Positions 12,820 through 22,490 of a stretch of 64,000 nt of DNA are shown here, piece by piece. Location of the stretch: contig LVAP01000007.1 in the NCBI GenBank assembly GCA_001603025.1, positions 1-64,000 of the forward strand. Direction: 5' to 3'. The number at the start of each line of letters is the position of its first letter. The stretch's first letter is position 1. The notes under the pieces are model-generated. The model saw nothing but the letters and a program-made list of their open reading frames with translations. It did not search any database and was not told the DNA's origin. The stretch comes from Clostridiales bacterium Firm_10 (lineage in GTDB: Bacteria > Bacillota > Clostridia > Christensenellales > Aristaeellaceae). A program made the translations under genes and the position numbers.

Positions 12820-14148
12820 TCATCCCTCCGCCGGGAGAATCTGCGGCCGGGCCTCGCCCGCCTCTTCCATTTTGCGCAGCAGCAGCGCCCGCATGTCCGC
12901 GCGCACCGCGGCGTATTCGGGATCCGCGACGAGGTTTGCCTGCTCGTGCGGATCCCGCGCCAGGTCGTACAGGAAGTCCTCCGTATAAACGGCGGCGTCC
13001 ATATCTTTCACACCGTTCTTGTCCCGCGCGCGCACGGAGTATTTCCACTCCGGCGTGCGTACGGCGCGGCCCACCTGGCTTTCGCTGATCTGCATGAACA
13101 CCGCGTTTTCCCAGTTCTCCACCTCACCCGCCGCCAGCGGAGCGATGGAACGCCCGTGGAAGCCCGCTGGGATCGGCGCGCCGGCGCAGTCCAGGATCGT
13201 GGCGGGCATATCCATCAGGCTCACCAGTTCCTTGATGACCGCGCGGCGGTTGAAGCCGGGGCCGTGGACGATGAGCGGGATGTGGGTACAGGCGTCGTGG
13301 CAGGAGCGCTTGTATTCCTGGTTGCGCGTGCGGAAATGCGAGCCGTGATCGGCGGTATAAATGAAAACCGTGTTCTCCCACAGGCCCTGGTCGATCAGCG
13401 CGTCGACCAGCCGGCCCACATTTTCGTCAATGCGCTGGCACTGGCCGAGATAGTCCGGGAAGTTCTCGCGCCAGTCGCCGTCGTGGCCTGCCAGGTCGCC
13501 CGGCACGTCGTACTGCGCGAAGCGACGCTTGCTGCCGTCCGGCCCCTCGTAACGGTTGTGGTCGTTCTGGTGATGCGGATCCAGCTGCGACACGAACAGG
13601 AAGAAGGGCTGTTCGCCATCCTGCCGGTGGATGTAGTCTACGGCGAAGCTGTTGATGCAGTCCACCCGGTAGCCGGTGAAATCCACGCGGCGGTTTTCCT
13701 TGTCGAACACATAGCCGTTGTAGCCGTGAGAGGTGTACTCCAGCGCGTCCGCGGCCATCCAGTAATCGGAATAGCCGCCCCGCAGCGCCTCCGGGATGGG
13801 CCCGGTGCGGTTGAGCAGGCCTTTGTCGCGATTGGAGGCCAGATGCCACTTGCCCACATAAGCCGTCCGGTAACCAGCGTCGTTCAGCGCGCCCGCCAGC
13901 GTGGGGACGTCCTGCGGCAGCTCAATGTCGTTGCGGAAGCAGCCCGTTTCCGTGGGCCAGCGTCCGGTCTGCAGGCAGGCGCGGGCGGGGCCGCACACCG
14001 GCTGGCAGGTAAACGCGCCGTCGAAGCGGCAACCCTCGGCGGCGATCCTGTCCAGGTTTGGCGTAATGTCCAGCCTCTGCCCATAGCAGCCCATGGTATC
14101 CCAGCGCTGCTGATCGGTAAAATAAAAAACAATGTTGGGTTTCTTCAT
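12820..14148 (-). CDS. Sulfatase, formylglycine-dependent (S1 family)
   Basis: The 442-residue product removes sulfate esters from carbohydrates. The sulfatase signature C-x-P-x-R appears as CGPARACLQTG, with Cys 52 the residue changed to formylglycine. Metal-site segments are FTDQQRWD (Asp 12, Gln 13) and TADHGSHF. The enzyme that makes formylglycine (anSME or FGE) is not in the window. There is no signal peptide, so it acts in the cytoplasm on imported sugars, which is uncommon for bacterial sulfatases. It has its own promoter carrying the same upstream element as the esterase operon. The start ATG at 14148 has only a modest ribosome site (AAAGGCGG). The sulfated substrate is not known. Confidence 0.93.
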   Translation of the reverse strand: MKKPNIVFYFTDQQRWDTMGCYGQRLDITPNLDRIAAEGCRFDGAFTCQPVCGPARACLQTGRWPTETGCFRNDIELPQDVPTLAGALNDAGYRTAYVGKWHLASNRDKGLLNRTGPIPEALRGGYSDYWMAADALEYTSHGYNGYVFDKENRRVDFTGYRVDCINSFAVDYIHRQDGEQPFFLFVSQLDPHHQNDHNRYEGPDGSKRRFAQYDVPGDLAGHDGDWRENFPDYLGQCQRIDENVGRLVDALIDQGLWENTVFIYTADHGSHFRTRNQEYKRSCHDACTHIPLIVHGPGFNRRAVIKELVSLMDMPATILDCAGAPIPAGFHGRSIAPLAAGEVENWENAVFMQISESQVGRAVRTPEWKYSVRARDKNGVKDMDAAVYTEDFLYDLARDPHEQANLVADPEYAAVRADMRALLLRKMEEAGEARPQILPAEG

Positions 14149-14197
14149 GCGTTCAATCCGCCTTTCAGCCCGGTGTTCCGGCTATCGCTACAAGCCC

Positions 14198-14206
14198 ATT
14201 ATAGCA
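14198..14206 (-). promoter_or_regulatory. Extended -10 of the sulfatase gene
   Basis: On the minus strand TGCTATAAT (14206 down to 14198) is a perfect extended -10, 50 bp upstream of the sulfatase start. There is no convincing -35 at 17 bp, which suggests dependence on an activator; the conserved 27-bp element lies 32 bp further upstream. Confidence 0.8.
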
Positions 14207-14238
14207 TGGACGCGCAGGACCCGCCAGACAAACCGGTG

Positions 14239-14265
14239 AAGACAAAATGATGAATTATATATTAC
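14239..14265 (-). promoter_or_regulatory. Conserved 27-bp promoter-upstream element, copy 1 (sulfatase)
   Basis: This element matches the copy at 19949-19975 at 25 of 27 positions. Its core reads GACAAAATGATGAATT on the plus strand. In both places exactly 32 bp separate it from a TGnTATAATGG extended -10 on the minus strand, which puts it at about -48 to -74 from the transcription start. The same sequence, the same orientation and the same spacing suggest an activator site shared by the two units. Confidence 0.7.
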
Positions 14266-14348: not shown

Positions 14349-15260
14349 TCACAGCTGTGGTATGACAATCTCCCACAGGCCTTCCAGGAGCGACTGCATG
14401 TCCGGCGTGCGCGCGTTATAGGTGATGACGGCATCCTTGTGGGGAATGACGAAACAGCCCTGCCCGTGCGCGCCGCTCGCGCGATAGGCGCCCATCCGGG
14501 CCATCCAGAATTGGTAGCCATAGCCCAGAGACTTGTCGTAAAAGAAGCCGCAGCCGTCGGTGGCGATCTGGAAGGAGGTCGCCTCCCTGACCCAGTCCGC
14601 AGAGACGATGCGCCTGTTTTCCCACTCGCCGCCCTGCAGGAGCATCTGCCCGAAGGGCAAGCTCTGCGCGGTCCTCAGGCGCAGGCCGGAGCCACCCAGC
14701 GAGTAGCCCAGCGGACACTTATCCCATTCCGGGTTTTCAATGCCGAGGGGATCAAACAGGCGGGGCTTCAGGTAGTCCAGCAGATCCTGTCCCGTTGTTT
14801 TCGCAATGATGCGTGAAAGCATGTAGGTGCAGCCGGAATCATAGACGAACGTTTTGCCGGGCTGCGTATCCGGCACGACGGCCAGAAAGGCTTTCGCCCA
14901 GTCCGTCTCCCCGGGCCTGTTTTCTTCGCCGTTCATGAGCGCCGGCCGGCTGACGCCGCTGGCCATGATCAGCAGATCCCGAACGGTCATTTCGGCGGCA
15001 TACCCGCTGACCTGTTCCGGCAGCAGCTCCGGAAAAAAGGAAACGACCGTGTCGTTCAGGGCAAAGCGTCCCTCGTCGATCGCGATGCCGACACCGATGC
15101 TCACATAACTCTTGCTCATGGAATAGAGCGGATGGGGCTCGTCCGCCGTCCAGCGGAACTCGTCCAGCAACTCGCCATGCTGCTGGACGCAGATGCCGAA
15201 CATGTTGATACCGCTCTCACCGATATATCGGACGTACTCTTTGAGTATCCTGCCTTTCAT
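14349..15260 (-). CDS. Serine hydrolase of the beta-lactamase (class C/esterase) fold
   Basis: The 303-residue product has the S-x-x-K catalytic motif as SMSK (Ser 47, Lys 50) and the overall order of class C beta-lactamase-like serine hydrolases (PF00144), including a DLLIMASGV segment that follows the usual first catalytic motif. Family members are peptidases, esterases or lactamases; with no signal peptide and with esterase neighbours, a cytoplasmic esterase is the best guess. It is the last gene of the minus-strand operon that starts at 19817, 55 bp after the TIR gene. An ATG at 15260 is used; the ribosome site (AAAGGAAC) is at a long distance. Confidence 0.8.
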   Translation of the reverse strand: MKGRILKEYVRYIGESGINMFGICVQQHGELLDEFRWTADEPHPLYSMSKSYVSIGVGIAIDEGRFALNDTVVSFFPELLPEQVSGYAAEMTVRDLLIMASGVSRPALMNGEENRPGETDWAKAFLAVVPDTQPGKTFVYDSGCTYMLSRIIAKTTGQDLLDYLKPRLFDPLGIENPEWDKCPLGYSLGGSGLRLRTAQSLPFGQMLLQGGEWENRRIVSADWVREATSFQIATDGCGFFYDKSLGYGYQFWMARMGAYRASGAHGQGCFVIPHKDAVITYNARTPDMQSLLEGLWEIVIPQL

Positions 15261-15315: not shown

Positions 15316-18075
15316 TCATGTCAGGAAATGGTTTTTCACATAAGCGGCGTTCTTTCCGTATTCCCTGTCAGGATATGCCTCTGCCAGTTTGCGATACAGC
15401 TCATACGCGATACCGGCTGCATGCCGGTCGCCCTGTTCCGCTTGCCTGTAATACCGCATAGCCACCTGCGCTCTGGTGATGCGAAGGTTCTCCGCGTATC
15501 CCGGCGTGTTCGGGCGGCGTGCCGCAAGATCCTCAAAAAGCACGCACGCCGTCTCTTTGCTCTCGAGATCATCTCGCACGCTGAGGAGATAGGCATAGTC
15601 GGATTCGGCCCGATCGCGCAGCCATAACGCGCCGGCCCGGTCGGGGTGCGCATCAGCCAGTGTCTTCAGGCGGTCAAAAACCTCTTTTAACGTCCCGGCG
15701 TTCTTCTCATTTCGGAGCGCGATGAGCGCTTCGTTCACCTGCTTTCCCGCGCTGTCCAGGCTCGCGCATGCCGTTTTGTTTTTCGGGTTCAGATCTATCG
15801 CCCGGCACCAGCATTCGTATCCCCTGAGGAGACTTCCAATGTCTTTCCGCATGCAGCAGGCAGTGCCCAGCCAGGTGAAAAGCTGCCCGTCGTTCGGATA
15901 ATACGCCATGGCGACCTGTTCCAGTCTTTCAGTGCAAACACCGTGTTCTTCCCATTTTCCCAGATCGGCCGCGATCTCCGCGAGTCTCCTGTAGTAGGTT
16001 TTCAGCTGCAGCGCCACATGCTGTACGCCGATCATCTTCCCTATCTTTTCTTCCGATTCCAGCGAAATGCGCAGATGTTCAGCCTCAGCGTTCAAATCGC
16101 CCTTTTTCTGTTCCACGGTGGATATCAGCGCATGGGCGCTGGAAAGATGGCGCATCGCAAAAATGGATTCTTCTTCCCGGCAGCGCTCTTCCGCCATTTC
16201 AAGCAGATTGACAGCCGTTTTTTCCGCCTCATCCAGCTCTCCCAGGGCGGCATAAACCTGCATGAGCGTGGTTTGGGCGAGTATGGTATACTCTTCCTTC
16301 CCGAGGGAAATGTTTTCTGCAATCAACCGATCTGCCAAATCAATCCCGGCAAGGCTGTATTCCTTGGCTTCATTCAGGCTCTCCGCCGATTTTTTGTCCG
16401 CTTCAAAAATGCAGAAAGCCAGTTCCCCATAAAGGTATATCAACCGCTTCGACATGGGCTTTTGGGCGTTTGTTTCCTGCTCGACCGCCTCGAGAAAGAG
16501 CGGAAGCGCCTCTTTGTAAAACGCAATGGCCTCCGTCCATTTCTTTTCCCTTTGCCTGATGCTGCCGCGCATGTGCATGATTTCTGCCCGGTACATCAGC
16601 AGGACGAAATCGGATTGGTCGGCGGAGCCTCTCTTCTTCTCCTCCACCTCCTTCATCGAAGCATGAACGGCTTCGCTGAGCGCTTCGGCCTGTGGGAGGA
16701 AGGATTCAGCCACCGGAAAATCCTTCTGCCTGACGGCGATACTCGCCGCAAACAGGCAGGTTTCCAGCAATGCGATCCGTTCTTTGGATGTCATTTCTTC
16801 CGTATCCACGGCCAGAGCTCTGCGGAACATAATCCAGGCTTTATCGTATTGGTAAAGACTGGCCCACTTCGCGCCGGATTTATTGGCCGCCCTGAAAAAG
16901 GCGTATCGCAGATTCTTATCCGCCGTCCCGGATGAAAGGCGCTTCTCCAACGCGTCTGCATACCTCTGCTGCCAAAAAGCGCTCTTCTCATAATCCCTTT
17001 CGACGCCCTGGCCGGTCTCATACATCGAGACCAGTTTCAGCAGGGCCTCATCCACGCCGGCTTCGGCCGCTTCAGTGATGAGACGCCTGGCTTTCTCGTG
17101 GTCCGTCTCCAAATCGATGCCGGACAGATAGGCCAGGCCCATAAAAAACTTGTGCTCCGGCGCGTCATTCCGGCGGATCGAAAGGGCCTCCCGAATCAGC
17201 CCCTCGATGAGGTCGGCATGCCTTTCGTCCGATGGAATCGAATCCGGAAGGCCGGGATAGCAGGCCTGAAGCGCCTCGCCGTCCGTGGGTACAGCCATAA
17301 CGGGAAGAATCCTTTTCCCGGCTTCCCTCGCCATGGGATACTCTGTCGTCATCACATAATTAGGTTTTTCCAGAAGATTCGGCGTAACCACCATGGAGAA
17401 CAGCCCGCTCTTTTCAAAGGCCGCGCGTATGGACTCATTAAAATCCTCCCCGGGCGTCAGGAACTCGTCATACCAGATGGCTATGTCACGGGCAAAGGGG
17501 TTTTTGTGGATCAGCCGCATCACTTCCTGGGCATGTTTCCTGTCTTTCTTCCGATAGCTCAGAAAGATATAGGCGGCAAAGGCCTGGCGAATCTTCGCAA
17601 TGGTTTCATCCTTCAGGAGAACGGTGTCGAGAAACAGCTTCAGCTTCTCTTCATAAGGAAGCGCCGTGGGATCCGGATCATCTTTGTTCAGGATCTGCAG
17701 GTTTCCACACACCGCGTTGAACCGCGCCTCCAGCCCCTGCTCCTGCATGATTGGCAGGATCGGAATGTGCCGCTCCACCGCGAAAGCAAATTCCATGATC
17801 CGCGCGCGGTTTTCCGTCGCCAGAAACTCCCCGGTTACGGGCACCGCGAACAGATTCATCTCAGAAAGATCGGAAAGATATGCTTCCTCCTCTTCCGGCG
17901 TTGTGATATCACCTTCCGGATACCACACGGAGATATTTGACTGGGCGCGGAAAAGATCCTCCGAAATGCTGTCGAAGTATCTCTCCCTGTCGCGCTCCGA
18001 CGCGCAGAAGAAGACCTTTTGCAGGTCCTTCAGAGCGGCCGCGCTTTTCGTCCTGTATGCCAGTTTGATCGCCAT
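15316..18075 (-). CDS. Large protein with tandem TIR-like domains and Sel1/TPR repeats
   Basis: The 919-residue product starts with a TIR-like fold (about 18-115: VFFCASERDRERY, then LSEMNLFAVPVTGEF), followed by a clearer TIR domain (about 166-265: AAYIFLSYRKKDRK, IWYDEFLTPGEDF, then LLEKPNYVMTTEYPMA). Glu 245 lies where TIR NADases have their catalytic glutamate. A Sel1-type repeat follows (about 345-385, MYETGQGVERDYEKSAFWQQ), and the rest to the C terminus is TPR-like helical repeats. Bacterial TIR domains consume NAD or make signal molecules, often in phage defence. Here the gene sits in an esterase operon, 24 bp after the SGNH gene, with GAGGAAAGG before its ATG. No signal peptide or membrane segment is seen. 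Its true role is unknown. Confidence 0.8.
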   Translation of the reverse strand: MAIKLAYRTKSAAALKDLQKVFFCASERDRERYFDSISEDLFRAQSNISVWYPEGDITTPEEEEAYLSDLSEMNLFAVPVTGEFLATENRARIMEFAFAVERHIPILPIMQEQGLEARFNAVCGNLQILNKDDPDPTALPYEEKLKLFLDTVLLKDETIAKIRQAFAAYIFLSYRKKDRKHAQEVMRLIHKNPFARDIAIWYDEFLTPGEDFNESIRAAFEKSGLFSMVVTPNLLEKPNYVMTTEYPMAREAGKRILPVMAVPTDGEALQACYPGLPDSIPSDERHADLIEGLIREALSIRRNDAPEHKFFMGLAYLSGIDLETDHEKARRLITEAAEAGVDEALLKLVSMYETGQGVERDYEKSAFWQQRYADALEKRLSSGTADKNLRYAFFRAANKSGAKWASLYQYDKAWIMFRRALAVDTEEMTSKERIALLETCLFAASIAVRQKDFPVAESFLPQAEALSEAVHASMKEVEEKKRGSADQSDFVLLMYRAEIMHMRGSIRQREKKWTEAIAFYKEALPLFLEAVEQETNAQKPMSKRLIYLYGELAFCIFEADKKSAESLNEAKEYSLAGIDLADRLIAENISLGKEEYTILAQTTLMQVYAALGELDEAEKTAVNLLEMAEERCREEESIFAMRHLSSAHALISTVEQKKGDLNAEAEHLRISLESEEKIGKMIGVQHVALQLKTYYRRLAEIAADLGKWEEHGVCTERLEQVAMAYYPNDGQLFTWLGTACCMRKDIGSLLRGYECWCRAIDLNPKNKTACASLDSAGKQVNEALIALRNEKNAGTLKEVFDRLKTLADAHPDRAGALWLRDRAESDYAYLLSVRDDLESKETACVLFEDLAARRPNTPGYAENLRITRAQVAMRYYRQAEQGDRHAAGIAYELYRKLAEAYPDREYGKNAAYVKNHFLT

Positions 18076-18098: not shown

Positions 18099-18755
18099 TC
18101 ACAGCGCCTGCAGAAAGCCGATAAGCCGCTCCGCAATGAGGGCGTTCCCTTCGTCGCTGGGATGCAGGCCATCCGGCATGTAGACCGCCCGCACAGCGGG
18201 AACGGCGGGCTGCATCCCGCCCGCGGCGTAAAGATCCAGCGCGGGAATGCTATAGTACTCCAGGATCTGGCGCATGGCGTCCACGTAATCCCTGAGCACG
18301 CCGACGGGAGCGGGCTTGTTGTCCCCGCAGGGGTCGTCTTCGTTGTGCCGGTGAAGCGGCAGGATGAAGGCGATCTCGCTGTGCGGATAGCGCGTCAGCA
18401 GCGTCTGGCAAAGCACGTGCATGGCTCCGCAGAAGGTGTCCCGCGTGCGGTCCGTCAGGGTGCCGAAGGGCGCGTCTCCGTGGCCGAAGTCGTTCGTTCC
18501 GCCGAACACGACCACCGCGTCCGCATCTGGGTCCATCTCCTCCGCGCGCATGCAGAAATCGAGGTCAAAACGCGGATTGTCCGTGGTCGGGCGCTGCTGA
18601 CGGGCAATCCGCGTGCCGCTGATGCCATAATTGCGGCAAAGGGCGCCCGTCTTCGCGGCGATGATGTCGACGTATCTCTTTTCAGGGGCGCTCGTCCCCA
18701 CGCCCTCGGTGATGCTGTCTCCGAGAAAATTCAGTTTTTTGTCCTTGAGCTGCAT
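18099..18755 (-). CDS. SGNH/GDSL-family esterase
   Basis: The 218-residue product carries all SGNH blocks: GDSIT (nucleophile Ser 14), the oxyanion block GGTND, and DGLHPSD with the catalytic Asp and His near the C terminus. This family removes acetyl and other acyl groups from sugars and glycans. It has no signal peptide. AGGAGGCCATT precedes the ATG at 18755. It lies between the alpha/beta hydrolase (39 bp upstream) and the TIR gene (24 bp downstream) in one operon, suggesting stepwise deacylation of an imported oligosaccharide. Confidence 0.9.
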   Translation of the reverse strand: MQLKDKKLNFLGDSITEGVGTSAPEKRYVDIIAAKTGALCRNYGISGTRIARQQRPTTDNPRFDLDFCMRAEEMDPDADAVVVFGGTNDFGHGDAPFGTLTDRTRDTFCGAMHVLCQTLLTRYPHSEIAFILPLHRHNEDDPCGDNKPAPVGVLRDYVDAMRQILEYYSIPALDLYAAGGMQPAVPAVRAVYMPDGLHPSDEGNALIAERLIGFLQAL

Positions 18756-18794: not shown

Positions 18795-19817
18795 TTATTT
18801 TCCCATTGCCTGCCGCAGGAATTCGCGCATGCCGTCGCCCCGCCATTCGTGGCCGCCGTCGTGCACGGAATGCCTCACCCTGTCCTCCGCGCCGAACAGC
18901 CGGTAAGCGGCCCGAGTCACATCCAGCTGCTCCGTGACGTTGGCGACGCGGCGTTTGCCGGAGAGCGGATCATCCGCGCCGCTCTCCACAAAGAACGGAC
19001 GCGGGGCGATCAGGGCGCCGAGTTCGCCCATATCGGCCGTCTCAAAGAAATGCGGCACATAGTTGCAGGCGCAGTTCTGCGGCAGTTCCATGAGGGCATC
19101 CCGCACGCCGTAGAAATATCCGCTGGTGACAGCAGCGCTGACCCGATCGTCCATGGCGGAGAACCACAGTGTCTGCTGTCCGCCGCCCGACATGCCCGCG
19201 CAAGCCAGAAACCCGCTGGCCTCCGGCTCGTCCAGCAGCCGGTCGGCAAGGCGCATCAGGTCCCAGACAGCCCCGCCTATGACCGTCCGCCCGAAGTTAA
19301 GCCCGAGCTGGGACAGCTCCCTGTGCGAATTGCTCCGCGCCTGCGCCGCCTCGTCTCCCTGTTCCGGGAATTCGCGGCGCTCCCCGCTGCCGCGCTCGTC
19401 CGGGCAGGCCACGATGAAACCGTCCTCCAGCGCCTCGCGGATAAACCGGCTCTGATGGATCAGAACCTGGCGCTTTGCACCGCCGTGGCCGTGGGGCACG
19501 ATCAGCGCCGGCCGCTTTCCTGCCGGAACCATGCCGGCATTGTCCTCGGGGCGAAGCAGATAATACGGCATGACGACGCCGGGCTCCGTCTGCAGCGTAT
19601 GGTATTCCGCCGTAAAGCCCTCAACTGTTTCAGTGCTCACATGCTGATGGAGAGGCTCGCAGGGGATGCAGCGGTCCAGGCCGGAAATATCCGCCAGACG
19701 TTCCCTCAGGGCCTTCTTCCAGACGGCGTATTCTGCCAGATTCTCTGCATGGAAGGCAAATTCTCTCTTCCCCGAGTCAAACAGCTTCAGGTAGTAGTCC
19801 AGCATCGTATAATACAT
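18795..19817 (-). CDS. Alpha/beta hydrolase, acetyl-xylan-esterase/dienelactone-hydrolase-like
   Basis: The 340-residue product shows an alpha/beta hydrolase fold with the oxyanion segment PHGHGGAKR (about 109-117), the nucleophile elbow GMSGGG (Ser 210) and a C-terminal HDGGHEWRGDG that supplies the catalytic histidine. Such proteins (PF12715-like) are esterases of carbohydrate clusters. No signal peptide is seen. AAAGGAGCGCAGAGC precedes the ATG at 19817. It is the first gene of the operon that continues with the SGNH esterase, the TIR protein and the serine hydrolase, driven by an extended -10 promoter. Confidence 0.85.
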   Translation of the reverse strand: MYYTMLDYYLKLFDSGKREFAFHAENLAEYAVWKKALRERLADISGLDRCIPCEPLHQHVSTETVEGFTAEYHTLQTEPGVVMPYYLLRPEDNAGMVPAGKRPALIVPHGHGGAKRQVLIHQSRFIREALEDGFIVACPDERGSGERREFPEQGDEAAQARSNSHRELSQLGLNFGRTVIGGAVWDLMRLADRLLDEPEASGFLACAGMSGGGQQTLWFSAMDDRVSAAVTSGYFYGVRDALMELPQNCACNYVPHFFETADMGELGALIAPRPFFVESGADDPLSGKRRVANVTEQLDVTRAAYRLFGAEDRVRHSVHDGGHEWRGDGMREFLRQAMGK

Positions 19818-19907
19818 GCTCTGCGCTCCTTTCAGCAGTCAAGTCCGGCGGGCGAGCGTTGGCCATGGGAAACGTTTCCGCATCTCCCCCGCTCCGTTTC
19901 CGCGTCC

Positions 19908-19916
19908 ATTATACCA
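19908..19916 (-). promoter_or_regulatory. Extended -10 of the esterase/TIR operon
   Basis: TGGTATAAT on the minus strand (19916 down to 19908) is a perfect extended -10, 91 bp upstream of the first gene. As with the sulfatase promoter, no good -35 is present, and the conserved element is 32 bp upstream. Confidence 0.8.
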
Positions 19917-19948
19917 CGCGGGAGAGAACCCTATCAGCCGAAAGGCCA

Positions 19949-19975
19949 AAGACAAAATGATGAATTGTGTATTAC
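19949..19975 (-). promoter_or_regulatory. Conserved 27-bp promoter-upstream element, copy 2 (esterase/TIR operon)
   Basis: Second copy of the element at 14239-14265, differing at two positions (GTGT for ATAT in the middle). The flanking DNA on both sides is unrelated, so this is not a simple recent duplication of the whole region. The copy nearest the start of the esterase operon keeps exactly the same 32-bp distance to the extended -10. Confidence 0.7.
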
Positions 19976-20060: not shown

Positions 20061-20089
20061 TTGATGTACAGCAACATTTCCGATATAAT
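20061..20089 (+). promoter_or_regulatory. Promoter of the coiled-coil/OmpA-domain gene
   Basis: A -35 TTGATG (20061-20066) and a -10 TATAAT (20084-20089) are 17 bp apart, with transcription expected to start near 20096, about 67 bp before the start codon. Confidence 0.8.
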
Positions 20090-20162
20090 ATATTATAAAG
20101 GTGTAATCGTAAAAAGCAGAAAAGCCTGCCAACATGCGACAGTTGCAATCGGAGGGTGTTTT

Positions 20163-22490
20163 ATGAATGGCAAAGTGAAGGCCTGCGGCGCCGCGCTGAT
20201 CGCGGCCGTGCTCGGACTCGGCGGAGGACTGGGGTATACCATTCATCAGAAACAGGCTGACCAGGAGGCCGCGCGGGCAACCATTGCGGAAGCCGAATCG
20301 CGCATCACCGCGCTTGAAGCGCAGTCTCAGGCGGATGCGGCAACCATTCTGGAGCTCAGCGGACAGGCCGAAGCCGATAAGGCTGCCATCGAGGAGCTGA
20401 CCGGACAGGCTGAAGCCGACAAGGCAACGATTGACGGCCTTTCTGCTCAGTCGAAGACCGATTCGGACACGATCGCAGCGCTGACGGCCCAAACGGAAGC
20501 CGATGGAGCGACCATCGCCAGCCTCACCGAACAGTCTGAAGAGGACGCGGAGGCCATCGCTCAGCTCAGCGCGAAGGCCGAGGAAGACGCGGAGGCCATC
20601 GCTCAGCTCAGCGCGAAGGCTGAGGAAGACGCGGAGGCCATCGCTCAGCTCAACGCGAAGGCCGAGGAAGACGCGGAGGCCATCGCTCAGCTCAGCGCGA
20701 AGGCTGAGGAAGACGCCGCTGCCATTGCGGAGCTGACCGCCAGGACAGAAGAAGACGCCGACCGCATTGTCGAGCTGGAAAAGCTTGCCGAAAGCCTGAC
20801 GCAGGGCAAAATCACCGATGAGGAAACCGACGGCGTCATCAAGGCGTTGGAAGCCGACAACGACCGGCTCCGCGACGAGCTTGCAAAATCTCAGGATGGG
20901 ACTGCCGCGGCTTATGAACAGACCATTTCCGTCCTGCTGGACAACCTTCGCCTTGCCGAAGCCCAGGTTGCCCTGCTGGAGGAAGCCGCAAAGGATGAAA
21001 CGGACGAGGACGAAGCCGCCCGACTTAACGAGCAGCTTGCGGCAGCGCAGGAAGCGCTACAGGCCGCTCAGGAAAAACTCGCCGCGCTGGAAGAGGCGGA
21101 TCCCTCCTTTGCGGAAATCGTCGAACAGTACAAGAGCCTGAAAACCGCACAGAATGAGCTGACCAGGAATCACGACGAGATCGCCAAAGCCCGGGACGAC
21201 ATATCCAGCCGGGAGACGGAGCTGAACGAGGCCCAGGCGGAAATCGAAAAGCGCGAGGCCCAGCTGAAAGAAGCCGAGGAATTGTTCAAATCCGATCAGG
21301 AAGCTGTCGCCGAAGCGGAAAAAGCGCTGGCTGAGGCCCGGAAAGAATTGGAAAGCGCCCAGGCCGAGCTGGAGACGGGCCGCGAACAGATTGCCGCCCG
21401 GCAGGCGGAGGTTGAAGCCGCCCAGACGGAAATTGAAAAAGAACAGGCGGACATCACCGAGCGGCAGGCGGAGCTGGACGCCCGGCAGGCGGACATCGAC
21501 GCCGCCCAAGCGGAAGTATCCGCCAACCAGGAGGAACTTTCTGCGGAACGGGAGAAAATTGCCGCCGCCAAAGAGGACCTGGAAAAACAGCTGGCCGCCT
21601 TCTCTGAGCAGCAGGATGCCCTGACCGCCAGCCAGGAAGCGCTCGCGTCTTCCCTGGCCGACCTGGATGCCCGGCAGACGGAGATGGAAGCAGCCCGGGA
21701 ACAGATGGAAGCGGCCGAAGCCGACCTGACCGCCCGCCAGGAGGCCCTTTCCCAGTCCGAAAGCGCTCACGCCCTGGCGGAAGCGAATCTGGCCGAAGCG
21801 CAGGAGGCGCTGGAAGCCCAGAAGCAGGCGCTGGCGCTGGCGCAGGAACAGCTTGAAAACGCGCAGGCCGAGCTGGAGGCTTCCCAGGCCGTTCTGGAAA
21901 CCAAAATGGCCGCGGTCAAAAACACCAGGCAGGACATTGAAACCGTCACGGCCGTCAAGGGCAACATCGTCACCGAATTCGGCAGCCTGTTCCAGGATAT
22001 GGGTATCACGGACGCAGGCGTGGCTCCGGACGGTTCCATCGTGTTCGAGGGCAACGCGACCTTCGAATCCAACGAATTCCGTCTGAACGAGGCGAGCCGC
22101 AACTTCCTCAGAAACTTTATTCCCGCCTATGTGCGCACCATGATGAAGCAGGAGAACAGCGGATATCTCTCCAGCATTGTCATCGAAGGACACGCGGACG
22201 CCGCCGGCGACTTCACCCAGAACATGTACCTCTCGCAGAACCGCGCGTGGGCCGTCTTCCGCTACATCATGGACGACCGTTTCGCCGAGCAGACCGGCCT
22301 GACCGCGGAGGAACGGGATTGGCTGAAGCAGGTCGTCAGCGTCACCGGGCGCTCCAGCAACGATCTCGTGTACGATGAAAACGGCAACTACGACGCAAAC
22401 GCTTCCCGGCGCGTGGTGCTCCGCTTCCGTCTGGACACGGAGGCCCAGCTGAAAGACGTGGCCGACATGCTGGATACCCTCGGGGATTGA
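20163..22490 (+). CDS. Membrane-anchored long coiled-coil protein with C-terminal OmpA-like domain
   Basis: The 775-residue product starts with one hydrophobic segment (ALIAAVLGLGGGLGYTI), then about 560 residues of alanine/glutamate-rich coiled coil, with four near-identical 14-residue units early on. The last about 150 residues form an OmpA/MotB-like peptidoglycan-binding domain: IVIEGHADAAGD with the ligand Asp, and LSQNRAWAVFRYI with the ligand Arg. The likely role is to bridge the membrane and the cell wall. Such a design is known from MotB-like and envelope-spanning proteins but is unusual in a presumed single-membrane bacterium. The start at 20163 follows GGAGGGTGTTTT. It is a single-gene unit with its own promoter and terminator. 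Confidence 0.85.
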   Translation: MNGKVKACGAALIAAVLGLGGGLGYTIHQKQADQEAARATIAEAESRITALEAQSQADAATILELSGQAEADKAAIEELTGQAEADKATIDGLSAQSKTDSDTIAALTAQTEADGATIASLTEQSEEDAEAIAQLSAKAEEDAEAIAQLSAKAEEDAEAIAQLNAKAEEDAEAIAQLSAKAEEDAAAIAELTARTEEDADRIVELEKLAESLTQGKITDEETDGVIKALEADNDRLRDELAKSQDGTAAAYEQTISVLLDNLRLAEAQVALLEEAAKDETDEDEAARLNEQLAAAQEALQAAQEKLAALEEADPSFAEIVEQYKSLKTAQNELTRNHDEIAKARDDISSRETELNEAQAEIEKREAQLKEAEELFKSDQEAVAEAEKALAEARKELESAQAELETGREQIAARQAEVEAAQTEIEKEQADITERQAELDARQADIDAAQAEVSANQEELSAEREKIAAAKEDLEKQLAAFSEQQDALTASQEALASSLADLDARQTEMEAAREQMEAAEADLTARQEALSQSESAHALAEANLAEAQEALEAQKQALALAQEQLENAQAELEASQAVLETKMAAVKNTRQDIETVTAVKGNIVTEFGSLFQDMGITDAGVAPDGSIVFEGNATFESNEFRLNEASRNFLRNFIPAYVRTMMKQENSGYLSSIVIEGHADAAGDFTQNMYLSQNRAWAVFRYIMDDRFAEQTGLTAEERDWLKQVVSVTGRSSNDLVYDENGNYDANASRRVVLRFRLDTEAQLKDVADMLDTLGD
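20538..20705 (+). repeat. 42-bp tandem repeat (four units) inside the coiled-coil gene
   Basis: Four consecutive 42-bp units (20538, 20580, 20622, 20664) differ by only a few bases and encode EEDAEAIAQLSAKA-type 14-residue blocks. Fourteen residues is two heptads, so gain or loss of a unit keeps the coiled-coil register. Near-identity at DNA level indicates recent expansion. Confidence 0.92.

What the first reader, a model, noticed from the sequence alone, without database searches (positions are those of the whole stretch)
15316..18075. TIR-TIR-Sel1/TPR protein embedded in a glycan-esterase operon
A 919-residue protein with two TIR-like domains and long helical repeats lies between an SGNH esterase (24 bp upstream) and a serine hydrolase (55 bp downstream), all transcribed from one extended -10 promoter. 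Bacterial TIR domains usually belong to phage-defence NADases or signalling enzymes and sit with defence genes; no defence gene is visible here. The second TIR has the WYDE..L..GEDF box and a glutamate (Glu 245) where NADases carry the catalytic glutamate; the first lacks a clear one. Possible meanings: a sensor that shuts down metabolism when a glycan is detected, an immune gene placed under nutrient control, or a TIR domain used for assembly only. The link to esterases is seen; the function is inference.
Basis: partly seen in the sequence, partly recalled or inferred. Interest (0 to 1): 0.85.

Follow-up and report, generated by a model that had tools for sequence, protein, structure and literature searches.

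The report
Stand-alone TIR receptor with variable sensor
This gut bacterium carries one of a large, patchily inherited family of proteins that join a conserved NAD-cleaving-type immune domain to a fast-changing sensor region; its position among sugar-ester enzymes is a peculiarity of this one genome, not a conserved system.

Summary
The ORF is real: 919 aa, minus strand, 15316-18075. Residues 168-298 are a confident TIR domain. Residues 4-165 are a degenerate TIR-superfamily domain most like nucleoside deoxyribosyltransferases. Sel1-type and TPR repeats follow. The gene is third of four in an esterase/hydrolase run behind one extended -10 promoter.

The proposed link to esterases does not hold beyond this genome. 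None of about 80 relatives keeps this gene order, and same-genus genomes carry the downstream gene without the TIR gene. The family is scattered and single-gene, in gut Clostridia and a few other lineages, with up to seven copies per genome. Its TIR-TIR-Sel1 core stays 45-77% identical to the window's, but the TPR tail only 21-43%, often with tandem 141-bp repeats. Glu245 is invariant (82/82) and probably matches the catalytic Glu of other TIRs.

Most likely it is a one-protein sensor-effector: the TPR solenoid binds a ligand and TIR2 then cleaves NAD+ or a related nucleotide. This is inferred; no activity is shown. Anti-phage use is plausible but unproven: rough counts show no defence-island or integrase enrichment. 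A real local extra is a promoter/operator shared with a sulfatase and one further locus, so here the gene may be under glycan-linked control.

The parts
15316..18075 (-). TIR-TIR-Sel1-TPR protein, 919 aa
17581..18066 (-). domain 1 (residues 4-165): degenerate TIR-superfamily / nucleoside-deoxyribosyltransferase-like fold
   Evidence: model; one search matches to 9emx (Z 9.7, 3.4 A, 124 aligned) and 8rps (Z 9.6, 3.9 A, 119 aligned); self-alignment with domain 2
17182..17574 (-). domain 2 (residues 168-298): TIR domain with NADase-type motifs
   Evidence: TIR_2; SPARTA TIR 8spo Z 12.3, SARM1 7anw Z 12.1, AbTir 7uxu Z 10.7; AbTIR by sequence E 1.3e-4
17341..17343 (-). Glu245 codon, probable catalytic glutamate, invariant 82/82
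17791..17793 (-). Glu95 codon, matching position in domain 1 (E 63, D 8 of 82)
16930..17160 (-). Sel1-type helical repeats (residues 306-382), part of the conserved core
15322..16911 (-). TPR solenoid (residues 389-918), fast-diverging presumed sensor
18099..18755 (-). SGNH/GDSL hydrolase, gene upstream in the cluster
18795..19817 (-). abhydrolase, first gene of the cluster
14349..15260 (-). beta-lactamase-fold serine hydrolase, gene downstream in the cluster
19906..19966 (-). operator AATTCATCATTTTGTCTT plus extended -10 promoter of the abhydrolase-SGNH-TIR-hydrolase run
14196..14256 (-). second copy of the same operator and extended -10, in front of the sulfatase
12820..14148 (-). sulfatase with its own copy of the shared promoter

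Best explanation
A stand-alone, horizontally spread sensor-effector protein. The C-terminal TPR solenoid binds a ligand, probably a peptide or an extended segment of a foreign or stress protein. Binding lets the TIR cores associate. The second TIR domain (Glu245) then cleaves NAD+ or a related nucleotide, either draining NAD+ or making a signal. The first, degenerate TIR/deoxyribosyltransferase-like domain and the Sel1 repeats are a fixed platform that positions TIR2. Shown: fold, invariant motifs, conserved core with variable tail, patchy multi-copy distribution, no conserved partner gene. Inferred: catalysis, ligand gating, oligomerisation and immune purpose. In this genome the gene landed in a glycan-ester gene run and by position is probably transcribed with it.
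For: Core model at pLDDT 94, pTM 0.90. TIR2 is structurally closest to enzymatic TIRs: SPARTA Z 12.3, SARM1 Z 12.1, AbTir Z 10.7; its profile finds AbTIR by sequence. Glu245 is invariant in 82/82, together with most of FLSYRKKDR and of the BB-loop box WYDEFLTPGE. A profile of 20 other gut TIRs puts its catalytic Glu column on Glu245 in most of the alignments shown. The BB loop is the one low-confidence part of the core model, as fits a mobile active-site loop. Core 46-76% against tail 21-43% identity in 14 relatives compared with the window. In 10 of 13 closer pairs the tail is 5 to 41 points less conserved than the core. 19 of 88 genes carry 141-bp tandem TPR arrays of 2.5-14 copies. The solenoid resembles peptide- and protein-binding TPRs: LGN Z 23, bacterial and phage Rap receptors Z about 18. 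Up to 7 copies per genome, yet present in only 4 of 290 other genomes of the class and 1 of 59 nearer relatives.
Against: No activity has been measured. The register of Glu245 needs a family-specific 2-residue insertion before it: MAFFT alone puts Thr243 there, and only 131 of 304 pairwise alignments choose Glu245, against 80 for the residue two places earlier. The gapless AbTIR alignment puts Glu245 one helix turn after AbTIR's own YE motif. Conserved Glu does not always track activity in TIRs (PMC7075850). Loci were fetched partly with a pattern covering residues 197-204, so invariance of that stretch is biased; Glu245 lies outside all patterns. No enrichment near restriction genes or integrases was seen.
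Confidence: 0.55

Rival explanations
1. Scaffold: both TIR domains serve only for assembly, and the protein recruits other factors through its TPRs.
For: Domain 1 is degenerate and has no invariant glutamate. TIRs with a conserved Glu can lack activity (PMC7075850).
Against: TIR2 motifs and Glu245 are the most conserved part of the whole protein. No conserved partner gene exists for a scaffold to recruit.
Confidence: 0.2
2. Glycan-linked sensor: the protein works with the neighbouring esterases and responds to an acetylated or sulfated glycan.
For: Four-gene run with 23-55 bp gaps and one promoter; the same operator precedes the sulfatase and one more carbohydrate-type locus. A few relatives lie beside a sulfatase-like gene (L019), a GDSL-like gene (L049, by eye) or a rhamnosidase-like gene (L023).
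Against: No conserved gene order in about 80 relatives or in same-genus genomes. Many neighbours elsewhere are housekeeping genes such as GAPDH, DHFR and peptidyl-tRNA hydrolase. Atypical GC3.
Confidence: 0.08
3. A more specific form of the best explanation: an anti-phage abortive-infection gene whose TPR tail recognises phage proteins.
For: Variable repeat arrays and patchy multi-copy distribution; one copy directly after Tn916-type Xis and integrase (L121), one copy 4.4 kb after McrC (L120). Known TIR defence precedents such as SpbK (PMC12847820).
Against: No enrichment near N6-methylase or integrase genes by rough count. PADLOC gives only weak partial TIR matches. No hit in phage genomes. 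Diversification could also reflect ligands from rivals or hosts.
Confidence: 0.4

Closest known systems
TIR-TPR proteins, 'group 6' TIRs of Toshchakov and Neuwald 2020 (PMC7075850)
   Same: N-terminal TIR followed by many TPRs, over 700 aa
   Different: Group 6 is over 95% actinobacterial with a different box consensus; here there are two TIR-superfamily domains and a Sel1 block, in gut Clostridia
NADase TIRs: SARM1, AbTir, SPARTA TIR-APAZ, gut TIRs of PMC9092222
   Same: TIR fold, box 1 SYR, BB-loop box, glutamate before the next core strand
   Different: Two extra residues before the glutamate; tandem with a degenerate domain; activity not shown; whether the tested gut TIRs belong to this family could not be checked
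TIR-STAND / TIR-NLR immune receptors
   Same: TIR effector plus C-terminal variable repeat sensor
   Different: No NTPase between TIR and repeats
Nucleoside 2'-deoxyribosyltransferase / DNPH1 fold
   Same: Fold of domain 1 (Z 9.6-9.7)
   Different: No invariant glutamate at the matching place in the family
Rap / NprR (RRNPPA) peptide receptors
   Same: TPR solenoid of similar shape
   Different: Fold likeness only; the N-terminus is TIR-TIR, not HTH or Rap bundle

Membership tests
TIR domain (Pfam TIR_2) | profile score above the curated cut-off and TIR fold | tested here: met
   domain 2: 49.4 bits against 28; TIR structures top the match list. Domain 1 is not found by Pfam.
NADase-type TIR | catalytic glutamate in the helix before strand D | tested here: met
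   Glu245 82/82; a profile of other gut TIRs aligns its Glu to it with a 2-residue insertion; competing register noted, so probable rather than certain
NADase-type TIR | hydrolysis of NAD+ | not testable with these tools
   needs an assay
Thoeris | ThsB TIR paired with an adjacent ThsA | tested here: not met
   only weak partial ThsB matches; no ThsA among window neighbours and no recurrent one in relatives
TIR-STAND / TIR-NLR | STAND or NB-ARC NTPase between TIR and repeats | tested here: not met
   no NTPase family in the protein; model passes from TIR2 straight into helical repeats
Group 6 TIR-TPR | N-terminal TIR plus multiple C-terminal TPRs, over 700 aa | tested here: met
   definition from PMC7075850
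Group 6 TIR-TPR | group-specific box consensus | tested here: inconclusive
   FLSYRKKDR and WYDEFLTPGE differ from the printed group 6 consensus, but no profile of that group was available
Conserved TIR-esterase system | gene order kept in relatives | tested here: not met
RRNPPA receptors | N-terminal HTH or Rap helical bundle with TPR | tested here: not met
   N-terminus is TIR-TIR

The most novel reading that the evidence does not exclude
An undescribed family of bacterial hypervariable immune receptors: a fixed tandem TIR/deoxyribosyltransferase-like effector joined directly, without an NTPase switch, to TPR arrays that expand, shrink and diverge like the repeat sensors of plant TIR-NLRs, with several differently tailed copies per gut bacterium.
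Probability: 0.35. Interest if true: 0.75.

Novelty: new variant of a known kind. Interest (0 to 1): 0.5.

Why it matters
If the reading is right, gut Clostridia keep private repertoires of TIR receptors whose sensor halves diversify by repeat recombination. That would be a simple bacterial parallel to repeat-based immune receptors, and a further source of NAD+-cleaving enzymes in the gut. The contrast between a near-fixed core and variable tails makes tail-swap experiments straightforward.

Tried and rejected
Conserved neighbourhood: all-against-all clustering of flanking genes found no shared partner beyond small groups of related loci. A roughly 700-aa partner next to the C75 and G019 copies, and RyR-domain proteins beside two or three others, are minority associations. 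Defence-island test with N6_Mtase and integrase families in 42 carrier genomes: few hits within 20 kb of family genes and no clear excess over a rough expectation done by hand; the integrase list was cut off and contigs are short, so this is weak. Phages: none; plasmids: one Sel1-only hit. Domain 1 by profile against PDB sequences: no hit. Foldseek on the core model returned mostly meaningless long matches; the VIA second look was informative. The careful tree did not finish, so only the quick one is used. Literature: no paper on this architecture found in seven completed searches of open-access papers; subscription journals and preprints are not covered.

Full report
OBSERVATION. The ORF 15316-18075 is on the minus strand and encodes 919 aa. 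Pfam finds TIR_2 at residues 170-262 (E 8e-13) and a weak Sel1. The surrounding minus-strand genes are an abhydrolase, an SGNH/GDSL hydrolase (23 bp upstream), a beta-lactamase-fold serine hydrolase (55 bp downstream) and a sulfatase 200 bp further on.

PROMOTER. An extended -10 site lies before the abhydrolase. In the whole 2.72-Mb genome the combined pattern occurs only three times, with zero for the reversed control. The third copy lies between a glycosidase-like gene and a carbon-nitrogen-hydrolase-like gene (the gene names are my reading of the sequence, not a profile result). So the run is probably under a small dedicated regulator. Co-transcription itself is inferred from spacing.

STRUCTURE. 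AlphaFold of residues 1-385 with 75 sequences gives pLDDT 94 and pTM 0.90. Domain 2 matches SPARTA TIR (Z 12.3, 4.6 A, 140 aligned), SARM1 (Z 12.1, 3.1 A, 130 aligned) and AbTir (Z 10.7, 3.4 A, 126 aligned); its profile finds AbTIR by sequence. Domain 1 matches nucleoside deoxyribosyltransferase and DNPH1 (Z 9.7 and 9.6), whose fold is related to TIR, and aligns with domain 2 in sequence, Glu95 opposite Glu245. The full-length model (pLDDT 88, pTM 0.66) shows a helical solenoid from residue 306 to the end, similar to LGN (Z 23) and to bacterial and phage Rap receptors (Z about 18).

FAMILY. 208 stretches in one genome collection encode relatives; the best 79 loci were fetched. They come from Clostridia, Erysipelotrichaceae, Coriobacteriaceae and a spirochaete, mostly from gut samples. 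The core (1-385) is 43-77% identical to the window's over the set and the tail 21-43% in the 14 relatives compared. TPR_12 is found in 64 of 69 tails. 19 of 88 genes hold 141-bp tandem arrays with 2.5 to 14 copies. Copies per genome reach seven. The window's genome has two more copies, which fall in distant parts of the quick, partly unresolved tree. Only 4 of 290 other genomes of the class and 1 of 59 closer relatives hold the core. With the low GC3 (z -2.2) this points to horizontal acquisition.

CATALYTIC GLUTAMATE. Glu245 is invariant in 82/82, outside the patterns used for fetching. In the other gut TIRs the Glu comes four residues after a W/N position; this family has two more residues there. 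A profile of 20 such TIRs aligns its Glu column with Glu245 in most alignments shown, and the residues after it (A at +4, then G-K and P) also match. Plain MAFFT prefers a different gap, so the assignment is probable, not certain.

ESTERASE LINK. Among about 80 loci the close same-strand neighbours are unrelated to one another and many are housekeeping genes; only isolated distant homologues of the window's hydrolases are found in the flanks. In the same genus, G001 has sulfatase and serine hydrolase 9 bp apart with no TIR gene between or upstream of the hydrolase, and G002 has the hydrolase beside a HAD-type gene. The association is local.

MOBILITY AND DEFENCE. Two viral-collection contigs carry copies. 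One lies directly after Tn916-type Xis and integrase in what looks like an integrative element; the other lies 4.4 kb after McrC. Rough counts show no general enrichment near methylases or integrases. Immune function is therefore plausible by architecture, not shown by context.

CONCLUSION. A member of an apparently undescribed TIR-TIR-Sel1-TPR family, best explained as a one-protein TPR-gated TIR enzyme. The esterase-operon idea falls as a general system; local co-regulation in this genome may still be real.

Noticed in passing
window 14196-14256 and 19906-19966 (-); G000:C79:6497-6557: A shared operator (AATTCATCATTTTGTCTT) at fixed distance from TGNTATAATGG, found three times in the genome, each before carbohydrate-type genes; looks like a small regulon.
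   Followed up: partly
window 20061-22490 (+): Divergent gene with a long coiled coil and a C-terminal OmpA/MotB-like domain that hits ZorB models (E 1.4e-40); whether a Zorya partner exists was not tested.
   Followed up: no
G000:C129:66755-68704 (L115 6756-8705), just past the window end: A second, canonical TIR protein (649 aa) on the same contig, with an 830-aa gene further on that by eye resembles membrane proteins found beside some family members.
   Followed up: partly
L113 5704-7821 (-), L114 7329-9419 (-): Homologous proteins of about 700 aa without a clear Pfam family directly upstream of the C75 and G019 TIR copies; a protein kinase-TPR gene follows in L114.
   Followed up: partly
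L066 4452-5999 (+), L078 9377-10810 (+): Membrane proteins of similar N-terminal sequence, with a RyR domain in the first, beside family members in two unrelated genomes.
   Followed up: no
L059 5998-14475, L052, L053, L065: Two or three TIR-TIR-Sel1-TPR genes close together with tails of different length.
   Followed up: no
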